Shown: one piece after another, positions 45,002 to 48,169 of the stretch | Layout of the letters: each line of letters begins with the position of its first letter | Numbering within the stretch: the stretch's first letter is position 1 | NCBI RefSeq assembly: GCF_021611515.1 | Contig: NZ_CP090960.1 | Coordinates: 2,046,001-2,110,000, forward strand | DNA from: Mariluticola halotolerans | GTDB taxonomy: Bacteria; Pseudomonadota; Alphaproteobacteria; Rhizobiales; Devosiaceae | Direction: 5' to 3' | Length of the DNA: 64,000 nucleotides | The notes under the pieces: generated by a model | Database searches by the model: none | Told to the model about the DNA's origin: nothing | The model's input: only the letters and a program-made list of their open reading frames with translations | Position numbers and translations under genes: made by a program

Positions 45002-45110
45002 CGTCATTCCCGCGCAGGCGGGAATCCAGTGGGGTGGTTCGGCGGTGGCGAAGGGGTTTTATGCGGGCAGGACTGCCCGCTGCTGGCTTCCCGTTTTCAC
45101 GGGAATGACG
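45002..45110. repeat. REPIN-like element, class A, copy 1
   Basis: A 109-bp element with ends CGTCATTCCCG and CGGGAATGACG. Left arm hairpin ATTCCCGC/GCGGGAAT, right arm hairpin ATTCCCGT/ACGGGAAT, and a third internal hairpin GCGGGCA/TGCCCGC. The arms are inverted copies of each other joined by CCAG/CTGG borders. Confidence 0.8.
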
Positions 45111-45144
45111 ATGAGGGTGAGGTGGTCTTTCTCCGCCCTCACAT

Positions 45145-45289
45145 CGTCATACTCGGGCTTGACCCGAGTACCCATGCAATGGTGCAGCGCGATTAGGCAG
45201 GCGTGTGGTGTGTAAAGGTTGTGGTTGTCCTGCCCTCAACCGAGGTGGAGAGCGGGTCATGGGCCCTCGGGTCAAGCCCGGGGGTGACG
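45145..45289. repeat. REPIN-like element, class BC, copy 1
   Basis: A 145-bp element starting CGTCATACTCGGG and ending GGGGGTGACG. The left hairpin is ACTCGGG/CCCGAGT and the right is CCTCGGG/CCCGGGG. The arms are inverted relatives and carry CCCATG / CATGGG at their inner borders. Confidence 0.78.
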
Positions 45290-45318
45290 AGTGGGGGTGG
45301 GGCGACTTGCACTTTCTT

Positions 45319-45341
45319 CATCCTGAGCCTGTCGAAGGATG
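45319..45341. repeat. CATCCTTCGACAGG-type palindromic repeat, single copy
   Basis: CATCCTGAGCCTGTCGAAGGATG (23 bases) can fold as CATCCT/AGGATG. The sequence motif of CAGGCTCAGGATG next to TCGAAGGATG is a familiar dispersed repeat of alphaproteobacterial genomes. It appears once here, 29 bases after BC copy 1. Confidence 0.55.
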
Positions 45342-45421
45342 GGCGGCAGGTGCGGTGTTCAAATCCAACCACGCAGCCGAAGGCCCCGCCGGGGCAAATC
45401 CGGCGGTTGGAAACGGCGCTT

Positions 45422-45484
45422 GCATGAGACGGTCGATGTCCCGCCTGATTGTTATTGTTATATGAGACACAGACCGTCTCATGC
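45422..45484. repeat. Unique inverted repeat with 13-bp perfect arms
   Basis: GCATGAGACGGTC (45422-45434) and GACCGTCTCATGC (45472-45484) are perfect inverted copies. Allowing two mismatches the arms extend to 19 bp. The 37-base spacer is AT-rich (TTGTTATTGTTATATGAGAC). It is unrelated to the A/BC/D classes and could be a small transposable-element remnant or a regulatory RNA hairpin. Confidence 0.6.
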
Positions 45485-45840
45485 GATCGGGGTTTTTGGC
45501 GTATCCTGCGCAACCTGGGGAGCTGACCCTTTTATCCCCCACCTACGCATGCCGGCTGTTTCGACCCCTTGAACGCCGCCTTGGCTGAGCAAAAAGTCCC
45601 GGCAATACCACGAAGCGAAAAACAGAACTCCGTGTACGATTATTTACGGCTAGCCTCGGTGATACCGGCCAGTCGACGCAGCTTGGCCTGGAACAGGGCG
45701 ACCCCTGTTCCACCCGACCCCGCCCCACTCAATGCTCGTGTGCACCTAAGCGCCATGTGGTTTGGTGGAGAAAGGATAACCGGGGTTGGCGGAGCGTCGA
45801 TAAGTTTTCTTTGGGGGCTGCATTTTTCCACCCCCCGCAT

Positions 45841-45982
45841 CGTCATACTCGGGCGTGACCCGAGTATCCATGAGATGGTGCCGCGTGATCGTTGGGCGGA
45901 TGGTGCAGGGGCGGTTTTGCCCCGCCCTCTGTTCGGTGTCGATGGTGGGTCATGGGCCCTCGGGTCAGGCCCGAGGGTGACG
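45841..45982. repeat. REPIN-like element, class BC, copy 2
   Basis: A 142-bp element, ends CGTCATACTCGGG and CGAGGGTGACG. The interior differs from copies 1 and 3 and contains its own hairpin AGGGGCGG...CCGCCCT. Copies 2 and 3 begin near-identical ~386-bp units. Confidence 0.78.
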
Positions 45983-46014
45983 AATGGGGACAAGGCCGCG
46001 TGATCGCGCACCCC

Positions 46015-46053
46015 GCTCTGGATTGCCGCGCGGCTGCGCCGCTCGCAATGACG
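46015..46053. repeat. REP-like half-element, class D, copy 2
   Basis: 39 bp (CTCTGGATTGCC...CGCAATGACG) forming a single hairpin; it equals the right arm of the full class D element at 26012-26109. The left arm is missing. Confidence 0.72.
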
Positions 46054-46085
46054 GGGGAGAGTTTTGGAACCTGCAACACCCACAA

Positions 46086-46193
46086 CGTCATTCCCGCGCA
46101 GGCGGGAATCCAGTGCGCCGTGTCGATGGCGCGAAAGAAGCCTTGTGCGGGCAGGACTGCCCGCGCTGGATTCCCGTTTTCACGGGAATGACG
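46086..46193. repeat. REPIN-like element, class A, copy 2
   Basis: A 108-bp full-length copy with the same three hairpins as copy 1. It is followed after a short spacer ending CCCTCACAT by BC copy 3, exactly as A copy 1 is followed by BC copy 1. Confidence 0.8.
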
Positions 46194-46227
46194 AGGGGGG
46201 TGGCTGATGATTTCCCCACCCTCACAT

Positions 46228-46367
46228 CGTCATACTCGGGCTTGACCCGAGTACCCATGCGATGCCGCAAGGGGATAGTCGGGCGTGAGGTTCGGGGTGG
46301 TTTTATCCCGCCCTCTGCCGGTGTGGAGAGTGGGTCATGGGCCCTCGGGTCAAGCCCGAGGGTGACG
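46228..46367. repeat. REPIN-like element, class BC, copy 3
   Basis: A 140-bp element. Its right arm and the following ~60 bases are almost identical to those of BC copy 2 (45945-46027 against 46330-46412). Confidence 0.78.
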
Positions 46368-46399
46368 AATGGGGACAAGGCCGCGTGATCGCGCACCCC

Positions 46400-46438
46400 G
46401 CTCTGGATTGCCACGCGGCGTGGCCGCTCGCAATGACG
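46400..46438. repeat. REP-like half-element, class D, copy 3
   Basis: 39 bp, a second isolated right arm of class D. Its stem differs from copy 2 at several paired positions (GCCACGCGGCG...), with changes that keep much of the pairing. Confidence 0.7.
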
Positions 46439-46470
46439 GGGGAGAGTTTTGGAACCTGCAACACCCACAA

Positions 46471-46558
46471 CGTCATTCCCGCGTAGGCGGGAATCCAGTG
46501 GGGTGGTTCAACGGTGGTGAAGAGGTTTTTGCGGGCAGGACTGCCCGCGCTGGATTCC
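46471..46558. repeat. REPIN-like element, class A, copy 3, truncated
   Basis: It matches copies 1 and 2 from CGTCATTCCCG up to CTGGATTCC and then stops: the last ~20 bases (right hairpin and ATGACG end) are replaced by unrelated AT-richer DNA. This marks the left edge of the islet that holds the split gene. Confidence 0.75.
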
Positions 46559-46679
46559 TCATGAAGTCGGAATAACGTTGAGGATCTGTAAAGTTGAACT
46601 GCAGGTCGATTTTTATTGGGCCAGAGCAAAACCGTAATTAAAGTCAGGCCGATAAATACTTCTGCAGGGGGAGATTCGA

Positions 46680-47105
46680 TTGACCGACTTTTTTGAGAAT
46701 TTAAGCAATGAACTTTCTAGGGTGCAACAATCAATTGAGACGTTGAACAAGTCTCAAAATGCGGCTTTTGACCCAACCAAATTCAGTTTTCAATATGACG
46801 CGAGACCATCTGAAAGTGTTAGAAGTCTGAACGAAGTGCAAGCTTCGATAAGCGTTATTTTCGAAGAGACCCAGAAATTTATCGGCAATAATCACTTCGA
46901 GTTGCTGCCAATATCATCTCTTACGAGCATGATCACATTCGTTGGTGAAGTCTCAGACGAGATCTCTTCTATGACAAAATTATTTGATCAGATCAATGAT
47001 GAGGAAGGTCTAGCAAAATATGATTCAGCAACCTTCATAGCCACAACCTCTACGGGAACTTCGATAAATTTTGCCCCCCGCTCACAACCCTCTCAACTTC
47101 ATTAG
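46680..47105 (+). CDS. Uncharacterised protein, N-terminal part of a split gene
   Basis: A 141-residue reading frame starting at TTG 46680 behind GGGGGAG. The protein is helical and hydrophilic (ENLSNELSRVQQSIETLNKSQ, then EVSDEISSMTKLFDQIN). No known domain recognised. The frame ends shortly after a C6 run at 47074-47079. Reading one extra C there continues without a stop into the frame that starts at 47114, giving the smooth joint APPLTTLSTSLDKLLKS, so the two are most likely one gene of about 490 codons. G+C is about 40-48% by eye, well below the neighbours. Either a frameshift mutation, a sequence error, or a programmed -1 shift. Confidence 0.6.
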   Translation: MTDFFENLSNELSRVQQSIETLNKSQNAAFDPTKFSFQYDARPSESVRSLNEVQASISVIFEETQKFIGNNHFELLPISSLTSMITFVGEVSDEISSMTKLFDQINDEEGLAKYDSATFIATTSTGTSINFAPRSQPSQLH

Positions 47106-47113
47106 ACAAGCTA

Positions 47114-48163
47114 TTGAAGTCCACATTGATGTTGGCACCTTTGACCAAGTCGCGGGGTGGCATGTCATTTGTAGCGGCTACAAATCAACTCGGTCAATTA
47201 TTCGATCGGATTGAAAATGAGCTTAAACGCGTGAAATCCGCTCGTTCAGAATACTCCGGTGCCACAGATGAACTCAAGAAATCTGGCGAAGTGGTCGCGG
47301 AGTTACTTGAAAAAATACAGACGGCGAATCAGTCGAGTCAATCAGCCAAACTACAAATCGACAGCGTCGTCTCTGAGCTCACGGCCTTACAGACACAAGG
47401 GCAAACTATTCATGCGAGCATCGAGGAAGTGGCATCAACGGCACGTAAACTTCATGCGTCCGTTGAAGAGTATCAAAAAAAATTCGACGAATTTGATGGG
47501 GCATTAAACACAAGACAAGAAAAAATTGCCTCAGGCGAAATTGAAATTGTCTCGCTTCATAGCCGGTTGGTCGAGACTGAGAAGGAAATTGAAGACATAA
47601 AAAAGCGATCAATCGATATGCTTGACGGAGCTACGATTGCGGGATTGGCAGGGGTATATAAAACCAAAGAGAACCAAACCAACAAGCGTCTCGGCTTGGC
47701 GGCCGTCGGCTTTTGGTTATCTATCTTTTTGCTGTTCTTATCTGCTGTTCCATTGATTGGATATGCCCTTTCCCCCTTCGCTGTATTTTTGAATGCAGAA
47801 TGGAAAGACGTGGTCGATCAGATTCGCGGCCCGGTCGTTACCAGTGACTGGCAGTATATAAGCCAAGTGTTCTCAAGGCTCGTTATTTTGCTACCCGCTG
47901 CATGGCTAGTTCGTATTACTACGGGAAGATACAATAGTCTGTTCAGGTTGCGAGAGCAGTATGGGCACAAATATGCCATTGCCTCTTCTGTGGAAGGGTT
48001 TAAACGACAAGCTCCAGATTTCCAAAGTGAGGTTGTTGCTTCAACATTTGAAGAACTCATGTATAATTCTATTGAACACCTACAGCCTGAGAAGAACGAG
48101 TCCAAGCCGCCAAACCGGATACTGAACTTCCTTTTGAACAAGCTCCGGGGGGCAGAAGATTAA
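47114..48163 (+). CDS. Uncharacterised coiled-coil membrane protein, C-terminal part of a split gene
   Basis: A 349-residue frame; its TTG start is only where the frame opens, and ATG at 47129 is an alternative if translated alone. Long coiled-coil segments (about 20-165, e.g. ENELKRVKSARSEY, ELLEKIQTANQSS, ETEKEIEDIKKR) lead to a short hinge (ATIAGLAGVYKTKENQ), two transmembrane segments (about 195-220 and 255-275) and a cytoplasmic tail with YGHKYAIASSVEGFKRQA. The plan of long coil, two membrane helices and soluble tail resembles membrane effectors of some defence systems, but no family was recognised. Its low G+C suggests transfer. It ends six bases from the convergent polA stop. Confidence 0.62.
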   Translation: MKSTLMLAPLTKSRGGMSFVAATNQLGQLFDRIENELKRVKSARSEYSGATDELKKSGEVVAELLEKIQTANQSSQSAKLQIDSVVSELTALQTQGQTIHASIEEVASTARKLHASVEEYQKKFDEFDGALNTRQEKIASGEIEIVSLHSRLVETEKEIEDIKKRSIDMLDGATIAGLAGVYKTKENQTNKRLGLAAVGFWLSIFLLFLSAVPLIGYALSPFAVFLNAEWKDVVDQIRGPVVTSDWQYISQVFSRLVILLPAAWLVRITTGRYNSLFRLREQYGHKYAIASSVEGFKRQAPDFQSEVVASTFEELMYNSIEHLQPEKNESKPPNRILNFLLNKLRGAED

Positions 48164-48169
48164 GTCCCT

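What the first reader, a model, noticed from the sequence alone, without database searches (positions are those of the whole stretch)
45002..46558. Array of REPIN-like double hairpins of three sequence classes with shared ends
Classes A, BC and D have different stems (ATTCCCG, ACTCGGG, ATTGCCGCGC) but the same plan: CGTCAT end, hairpin, CCAG- or CCATG-like inner border, spacer, mirror-image arm, ATGACG end. This is the layout of REPINs mobilised by RAYT transposases in gammaproteobacteria. Three unlike stems sharing terminal CGTCA suggests one mobilising enzyme recognising the ends, or parallel families. No RAYT gene is in the window.
Basis: partly seen in the sequence, partly recalled or inferred. 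Interest (0 to 1): 0.55.

Follow-up and report, generated by a model that had tools for sequence, protein, structure and literature searches.

The report
Palindrome array around unknown RNA gene
The array is a cluster of a known kind of bacterial palindromic repeat, but it is built around a copy of a many-copy element that looks like an undescribed gene for a structured RNA.

Summary
Observation confirmed: the window's nine strict CGTC-tagged hairpins all lie at 45002-46497, and classes A, BC and D recur genome-wide (72, 30, 39 arms; reversed-pattern controls 0). Class A is a CGTC-1 REP (PMC3733652; dRS3 in Neisseria), of a superfamily without a dedicated transposase; BC and D resemble it less exactly. 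The RAYT reading is not supported: the genome has no Y1 transposase, nor has any of the 12 family genomes (of 61) with 10 or more A arms. It has a covarying fold (54 pairs, 30 with double changes) and a promoter-like box pair at fixed spacing (50 of 57 copies). Seven loci scanned gave no Rfam match, and no linked protein was found. I read it as a noncoding-RNA gene family of Devosiaceae around which CGTC REPs have gathered in this genome. Transcription, function and mobiliser are not shown.

The parts
45002..45110 (+). Class A element 1 (CGTC-1 REP pair: two 28-bp arms, about 53-bp spacer)
45145..45289 (+). Class BC element 1 (arms 45145-45176 and 45258-45289)
45318..45341 (+). Class E palindrome (CATCCTGAGCCTGTCGAAGGATG type, no CGTC tag), single here, often in inverted pairs about 50 nt apart elsewhere in the genome
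45422..45812 (-). Core: divergent copy of a multi-copy structured-RNA-like element; RNA strand is minus, 5' end near 45765 (inferred), terminal palindromic hairpin about 45424-45486
45773..45803 (-). Promoter-like box pair TTATC-N20-TATCCT of the core (45803-45799 and 45778-45773)
   Evidence: the same pair in 50 of 57 other copies, spacing 20 in 49 of those 50
45488..45715 (-). Covariance-model match of the core (37.9 bits), with its own fully paired GGAACAGGGGTCGCCCTGTTCC hairpin
45841..45982 (+). Class BC element 2 (arms 45841-45872 and 45951-45982)
46018..46053 (+). Class D arm 1 (tag ATGACG at the right end, unpaired)
46086..46193 (+). Class A element 2
46228..46367 (+). Class BC element 3
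46403..46438 (+). Class D arm 2 (unpaired)
46471..46558 (+). Class A element 3, right arm truncated at the border of an AT-rich stretch
45934..46523 (+). 385-bp tandem duplication (copies 45934-46138 and 46319-46523, 90%)

Best explanation
The array is one of 14 composite mosaics in this chromosome. Its hairpin pairs are CGTC-tagged REP dimers and kin (known superfamily; no resident RAYT). They have accumulated around, and been duplicated together with, copies of a dispersed element that looks like a noncoding-RNA gene (the core). Shown: the composite organisation, the covarying fold, the promoter-like boxes, the copy numbers, the absence of a Y1 match. Inferred: the core is transcribed from its own promoter as a structured RNA of about 300-350 nt; core copies were dispersed by an unidentified transposition-like process; the arrays then grew by insertion of REP dimers beside the core, exchange of REP classes at the same junction, tandem duplication and recombination between arrays. 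A-element arms keep perfect stems but avoid identical partners, which fits selection against long perfect palindromes.
For: REP classes. A arms have tag CGTC, 8-bp stem, 4-nt loop and CCA tail, as in CGTC-1 of PMC3733652. No Y1. Core: 13 copies at 92-99% identity to a consensus, all 13 loci with CGTC hairpins; the junction next to the core carries class A in 7 of 13 and class BC in 6 of 13. Within 1 kb of a core lie 35 of 72 A, 20 of 30 BC and 14 of 39 D arms, against about 0.8% expected. Fold: 54 pairs, 30 with changes on both sides; 95.8% of cells paired against 79.0% in shuffles; covariation score 0.460 against 0.168 (0 of 500 shuffles) and at most 0.125 in slid controls; an invariant GAAA loop on swapped stems. 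Box pair TTATC-N20-TATNNT in 50 of 57 copies, 0 of 2850 shuffled upstream stretches, and present in the window copy. The window copy, not used for the model, matches it and folds with z -3.3. Same-stem A dimers 2 of 32, expected 8.8, P 0.002.
Against: No expression data. In one search one measure, further pair types, does not beat the shuffles (59 against 60.3; 368 of 500 as high), and the structure tested was derived from the same alignment of related copies. Model E-values are rough: a coding stretch at 41372-41299 scores 29.2 bits in the same scan, and the genome-wide model search did not list the window copy, so that copy rests also on BLAST, the box pair and its position. TTATC is not a textbook -35 box. 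Covariation alone cannot tell RNA from single-stranded DNA. Part of the REP clustering reflects duplication of whole composites, so arm counts are not independent events. Stop-free runs of 84-116 aa exist around the core; indels between copies argue against coding but do not exclude a short ORF. PMC3733652 says homodimers predominate in CGTC-1, the opposite of what I see here, though it names two species with only heterodimers. Class BC has an extra unpaired A after the tag and a CCCA tail, so it is not an exact fit to the published families as far as I could read them.
Confidence: 0.75

Rival explanations
1. RAYT-mobilised REPINs, with the RAYT lost from this genome.
For: REPIN-like layout: paired inverted arms, outward tags, genome-wide. 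Loss of RAYT genes by deletion is described for E. coli strains (PMC3733652 passage).
Against: No Y1 in any of the 12 family genomes (of 61) with 10 or more A arms; Y1 loci of relatives are not bordered by such arms, one 4-mismatch hit apart; the tag is CGTC, not GTAG; no two of 32 A elements are identical, so no sign of a recent burst.
Confidence: 0.07
2. The core is not an RNA gene but a single-stranded-DNA-structured non-autonomous transposon whose covarying hairpins are recognised by a transposase in DNA form.
For: Dispersed copies with unrelated flanks; in G015 the core lies between divergent genes in 0 of 27 cases (1 of 27 at a lower gene threshold), against 7 of 37 other neighbouring pairs, and between codirectional genes it shows no strand preference there (10 same, 8 opposite).
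Against: A multibranched fold with an invariant GAAA loop and an upstream box pair at fixed spacing is what RNA genes look like. In G000 and G004 the strands lean one way (6 same, 1 opposite; 4 same, 2 opposite). No linked protein noticed, no Y1 in the core-bearing genomes; IS110 and RVT presence does not track the core.
Confidence: 0.2
3. The arrays are BIME- or NIME-like recombination debris in which the core is only an old, inert repeat.
For: Tandem duplication, class swapping and nested insertions. PMC3733652 notes that Neisseria CGTC-1 elements sit in mosaics with other repeats, and PMC3898611 describes such arrays.
Against: Compensatory changes across three genera indicate that the fold is or was maintained; at 27 G015 loci the core stands without any CGTC hairpin.
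Confidence: 0.15

Closest known systems
CGTC-tagged REP superfamily (Di Nocera et al. 2013, PMC3733652)
   Same: Class A: CGTC/TGTC tag, 8-bp stem starting with A/T pairs, 4-nt loop, CCA tail, inverted dimers, no transposase, typical of alphaproteobacteria.
   Different: The paper says homodimers predominate in CGTC-1 and that grouped elements are rare outside Neisseria and Wolbachia; here 30 of 32 A dimers are unlike and elements are grouped. A tie to a structured-RNA element is not among the associations its section 7 lists. Devosia is not mentioned in its main text. BC has an extra unpaired A and a CCCA tail; D has a long bulged stem; E has no tag.
Neisserial dRS3 / NIME arrays (PMC3898611)
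   Same: dRS3 is ATTCCC(N8)GGGAAT; 38 of 64 A arms fit it exactly. Intergenic arrays of 200-2700 bp with several repeat families.
   Different: No RNA-like core in the passages I read; the role of dRS3 as a phage integration site was not tested here.
REPIN/RAYT systems (Bertels and Rainey 2011, PMC3116915)
   Same: Inverted doublets as the repeated unit; ordered tandem clusters.
   Different: No RAYT in the genome; the tag differs.
HEARO and other mobile structured RNAs (recalled, from no call)
   Same: Multi-copy structured RNA dispersed between genes.
   Different: No Rfam match above a gathering score at the seven core loci scanned; no associated ORF noticed.

Membership tests
CGTC-tagged REP superfamily (class A) | Unpaired CGTC (or TGTC/CCTC) tag, 8-9 bp stem starting with A/T pairs, 4-5 nt loop, CCA tail | tested here: met
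   60 of 64 A arms have a perfect 8-bp stem
CGTC-tagged REP superfamily (classes BC, D) | Same | tested here: inconclusive
   BC: tag and 5-nt loop, but an extra unpaired A after the tag, a CCCA tail, and a second arm whose stem does not start with A/T pairs. D: tag and CCAG end, long bulged stem. The paper's Figure 2 could not be seen.
CGTC-tagged REP superfamily | Inverted dimers; no RAYT flanked by the repeat | tested here: met
   58 of 72 A arms with a neighbour at 60-100 nt, 30 of 30 BC arms paired; no Y1. D mostly single.
REPIN/RAYT | Inverted REP doublets genome-wide | tested here: met
REPIN/RAYT | Cognate RAYT (Y1, PF01797) in the genome, flanked by the REP | tested here: not met
   none in the genome, 5 of 14 control genomes ring; relatives' Y1 loci not bordered by these arms
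REPIN/RAYT | GTAG tag of RAYT-associated REPs | tested here: not met
   Arm sequences; GTAG as the usual tag from PMC3733652
Neisserial dRS3 / NIME | ATTCCC(N8)GGGAAT repeats in intergenic mosaics | tested here: met
   38 of 64 A arms by the consensus in PMC3898611; 22 are ATCCCC arms and 4 are odd. A resemblance in sequence and plan, not a claim of neisserial origin.
Neisserial dRS3 / NIME | Target of a filamentous-phage recombinase | not tested
   -
Known Rfam RNA family | Match above the gathering score at the core | tested here: not met
   window: two tRNAs only; 7 core loci, E up to 1 and up to 5: only matches below gathering scores
New noncoding-RNA gene family | Conserved fold with compensatory changes beyond controls | tested here: met
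   on 25 of 39 distinct hairpin-ended copies; four of five measures beat all 500 shuffles, further pair types does not
New noncoding-RNA gene family | Transcript | not testable with these tools
   Only promoter-like boxes

The most novel reading that the evidence does not exclude
A SINE-like element in bacteria: an independently promoted, multibranched structured RNA gene in 13-27 dispersed copies per genome (three genomes counted, one in each of three Devosiaceae genera), with no protein partner in sight. It spreads by an unknown mechanism and serves as the seed around which CGTC REP mosaics grow, which would explain why these REPs cluster without any transposase of their own.
Probability: 0.3. 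Interest if true: 0.8.

Novelty: new variant of a known kind. Interest (0 to 1): 0.55.

Why it matters
How CGTC REPs spread without a dedicated transposase is an open question stated in print (PMC3733652). The family data here argue against a resident Y1 enzyme and show an avoidance of identical arms that can be tested. Separately, a covarying RNA-like family with promoter-like boxes, in 13-27 copies per genome and without an Rfam match, is a clean target for RNA-seq, probing and knock-out in a marine type strain (Cucumibacter marinus DSM 18995).

Tried and rejected
RAYT: not supported. Retroposition by a resident reverse transcriptase: RVT_1 is present in G000, G004, G045, G049, G055 and G058 but absent in G015 (27 core copies) and G028, so it does not track the core. 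IS110 transposase: absent in G000, G004, G015, G028 and G045, present in G049, G055 and G058. A linked ORF: 1,914 stop-free stretches of 90 aa or more from 95 loci (mostly 1.5-kb flanks) were clustered; I looked only at the longest member of the 14 largest groups, which are repeat translations, groups chained by them, or neighbouring genes, and saw no transposase. Plasmids, phages (blastn, one copy as query) and viral contigs (one exact pattern): no match. Target-site duplications: none visible by eye; no same-genus genome was seen, so no empty-site test. Coding by the core: not supported (indels between copies), though stop-free runs of 84-116 aa exist. Literature: searches listed nothing on the core by title or abstract, and 14, 62 and 72 returned no papers (open-access library only). 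Papers: PMC3733652 outline with abstract, sections 6 and 7, passages; PMC3898611, PMC3116915 and PMC12306157 passages; all others as search listings.

Rows dropped. Alignment A1 holds 25 of 39 distinct hairpin-ended copies; the 14 left out are 8 near-identical G000 copies and 6 from other genomes, two of them with long inserts. Before that the script set aside L108, L130, L135 and L139 (no end found), and L101 did not fit its pattern. A2 holds 22 of 36. The 32 A elements come from 45 stretches around 30 of 72 A, 30 of 30 BC and 30 of 39 D hits, and the script accepted only lengths of 90-125 bp. Gene orientations by a home-made codon score: G015 10 convergent, 16 codirectional, 1 divergent, or 9, 18, 0 at a stricter threshold, against 3, 27, 7 for other neighbouring pairs; G000 4, 7, 2 (others 5, 30, 8); G004 4, 6, 3 and 4 unresolved of 17 (others 3, 8, 5). 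The avoidance of divergent gaps is thus seen in G015 only, and the window array itself lies between a minus-strand gene and a plus-strand ORF.

After the first check of this report I corrected: the homo/heterodimer statement of PMC3733652, the fit of class BC, the D pairing denominator, the strand counts in G000 and G004, the failed shuffle measure and the list of dropped rows.

Full report
What is there. The window is G000:C1:2046001-2110000 of a 3.45-Mb, two-contig genome. Its family is Devosiaceae by inference: G004, of the same family, has the contig lengths of Cucumibacter marinus DSM 18995, which NCBI places in Devosiaceae together with Pelagibacterium. The described array is real. A strict hairpin scan finds nine CGTC-tagged hairpins in the 64 kb, all between 45002 and 46497, none in five shuffled copies. 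Genome-wide there are 72 class A arms, 30 class BC left arms and 39 class D arms at up to 3 mismatches, with 0 matches for the reversed patterns.

Paired organisation. 58 of 72 A arms have another A arm 60-100 nt away. In the stretches fetched (around 30 of 72 A, 30 of 30 BC and 30 of 39 D hits) I extracted 32 whole A elements of 105-111 bp, 22 of them exactly 109 bp; the script accepted 90-125 bp. 60 of 64 arms have a perfect 8-bp stem of one of three kinds that differ by compensatory changes, and only 2 of 32 elements carry the same stem twice, against 8.8 expected when arms are shuffled within sides (P 0.002) or 9.8 when pooled (P 0.0009). Copies are related, so these P values are indicative. 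No two of the 32 are identical (mean identity 81%). All 30 BC arms have an inverted partner (my reading). Of the 39 D arms 35 lie in fetched DNA, and 8 of these 35 are in tag-outward pairs (my reading).

What the hairpins are. Class A fits CGTC-1 of the CGTC-tagged REP superfamily of PMC3733652 (abstract, sections 6 and 7 and passages read): CGTC/TGTC tag, 8-bp stem, 4-nt loop, CCA tail, inverted dimers, mostly alphaproteobacterial, apparently no dedicated transposase. Class BC shares tag and 5-nt loop but has an extra unpaired A and a CCCA tail; D has the tag and a long bulged stem; E lacks the tag. The paper equates Neisseria CGTC-1 with dRS3, and PMC3898611 (passages) gives dRS3 as ATTCCC(N8)GGGAAT; 38 of 64 A arms fit exactly. 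It notes that Neisseria CGTC-1 elements sit in mosaics with other repeats. It also says that homodimers predominate in CGTC-1 (with two species having only heterodimers) and that grouped elements are otherwise rare; on both counts this genome departs from the usual. This part is a new member of a known kind.

The RAYT test. The genome has no PF01797 match. In the 61 family genomes (G000-G060), Y1 is found in two (G012 with 5 A arms, G018 with none), while 12 genomes have 10 or more A arms and none of those has Y1; G007 and G008 among the 12 are only 71% and 60% complete. Over all 101 genomes, Y1 is in 3 of 18 with 10 or more A arms and in 8 of 83 with fewer. Thirteen Y1 loci of relatives are not bordered by A, BC, D or E hairpins; one (L174, G018) carries an A-like hit with 4 mismatches and five carry a bare CGTCATNC octamer.

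The core. Between the window's first and second BC pairs lies 45422-45812. In 13 other places of the chromosome a conserved 349-bp sequence sits in the same kind of position, beside a CGTC REP pair, 92-99% identical to a consensus. The window copy matches only at its two ends by BLAST (79% over 90 nt, 89% over 36 nt). All 13 core loci carry CGTC hairpins (71 in 91 kb). Twelve of 17 clusters of four or more arms contain a core, and 35 of 72 A, 20 of 30 BC and 14 of 39 D arms lie within 1 kb of one of the 14 cores, where 0.8% would be expected. Next to the core stands class A in 7 of 13 and class BC in 6 of 13 copies, which points to exchange at a shared junction. Composites share up to 1.4 kb, so part of this clustering is block duplication.

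The core is a family. BLAST found it in 9 of 101 genomes: G000, G004, G015, G045, G049, G055, G058, and weak single hits in G012 and G040 (only the best candidates of each genome were scored). An exact 33-nt pattern over named genomes gave 11 stretches: nine in Cucumibacter marinus, one in a Pelagibacterium MAG, one in a Rhizobiales MAG (records very near the window's genome may be left out there). On 25 of 39 distinct copies RNAalifold gives 54 pairs, 30 with double changes. 95.8% of cells pair against 79.0% in shuffles and the covariation score is 0.460 against 0.168, with slid controls at 0.125 or less; the count of further pair types does not beat the shuffles (59 against 60.3), and the structure comes from the same alignment. 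One hairpin keeps a GAAA loop while its stem changes completely between copies. A model built from 22 copies finds 13 copies in G000, 19 in G004 (two of them weak, 41 bits) and 27 in G015, and none in the other 37 of 40 genomes (first-look candidates were capped). With stricter filters it rings in 3 of 297 genomes of the order, G000, G015 and G028, all of the window's family. The window copy, not in the model, matches at 37.9 bits over 45715-45488 with its own paired stems; a coding stretch at 41372-41299 reached 29.2 bits in the same scan, and the genome-wide search did not list the window copy, so this score alone would not settle it. The window copy folds better than shuffles (z -3.3), as does the consensus on the same strand (z -3.8; the other strand z -1.8).

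Promoter-like boxes. Upstream of the fold, 50 of 57 copies (G015 21 of 27, G004 16 of 17, G000 13 of 13) carry TTATC and a TATNNT hexamer, 20 nt apart in 49 and 21 in one; 2,850 shuffled upstream stretches give 0. Base shuffling is a lenient control, because the copies are related. The window copy has TTATC at 45803-45799 and TATCCT at 45778-45773. That this is a promoter is inference.

How it may work. At its 27 G015 loci the core stands without any CGTC hairpin and lies between divergent genes in 0 or 1 of 27 cases, against 7 of 37 other neighbouring pairs; in G000 (2 of 13) and G004 (3 of 17, 4 unresolved) this avoidance is not seen. So the core can live without the REPs, and in the window's lineage the REPs have gathered around it. 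No linked protein was noticed, and Y1, RVT_1 and IS110 presence does not track it. No Rfam match at seven core loci or in the window; no match in plasmids, phages or viral contigs. What moves the core, what moves the REPs, and what the RNA does remain open; my best reading is an RNA gene dispersed by an unidentified enzyme.

Verdict. The array is confirmed; its repeats are of a known kind; the RAYT mechanism is not supported; the structured-RNA core is the part worth pursuing.

Noticed in passing
46560-48165: AT-rich stretch (GC 43-46% from 46500 to 48000 against about 60% around) with two ORFs (141 aa without a Pfam match; 349 aa with only coiled-coil matches below cut-off), starting about where the third A element is truncated; perhaps inserted DNA, next to polA.
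   Followed up: partly
L290, L295, L300 (own genome near 2932400, 2495800 and 37680): An insert of about 200 bp with paired CCCTCCCC/GGGGAGGG hairpins between the core and D in 3 of 10 near-identical composites aligned; another untagged REPIN-like pair and a filled/empty site comparison.
   Followed up: partly
G015 loci L263-L266, L270, L272: The core falls into several length subtypes within one genome; in these six loci the usual TTATC box is replaced by a different 5' segment.
   Followed up: no
G010, G054 and G004 hits: The same A arms are paired at genome-specific spacings (about 58, 51 and 111 nt start to start), so arms are conserved across genera while spacers are not.
   Followed up: no
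L066 2682-3034: Match below gathering score (58.6 bits, gathering 78) to the cspA thermoregulator, away from the core.
   Followed up: no
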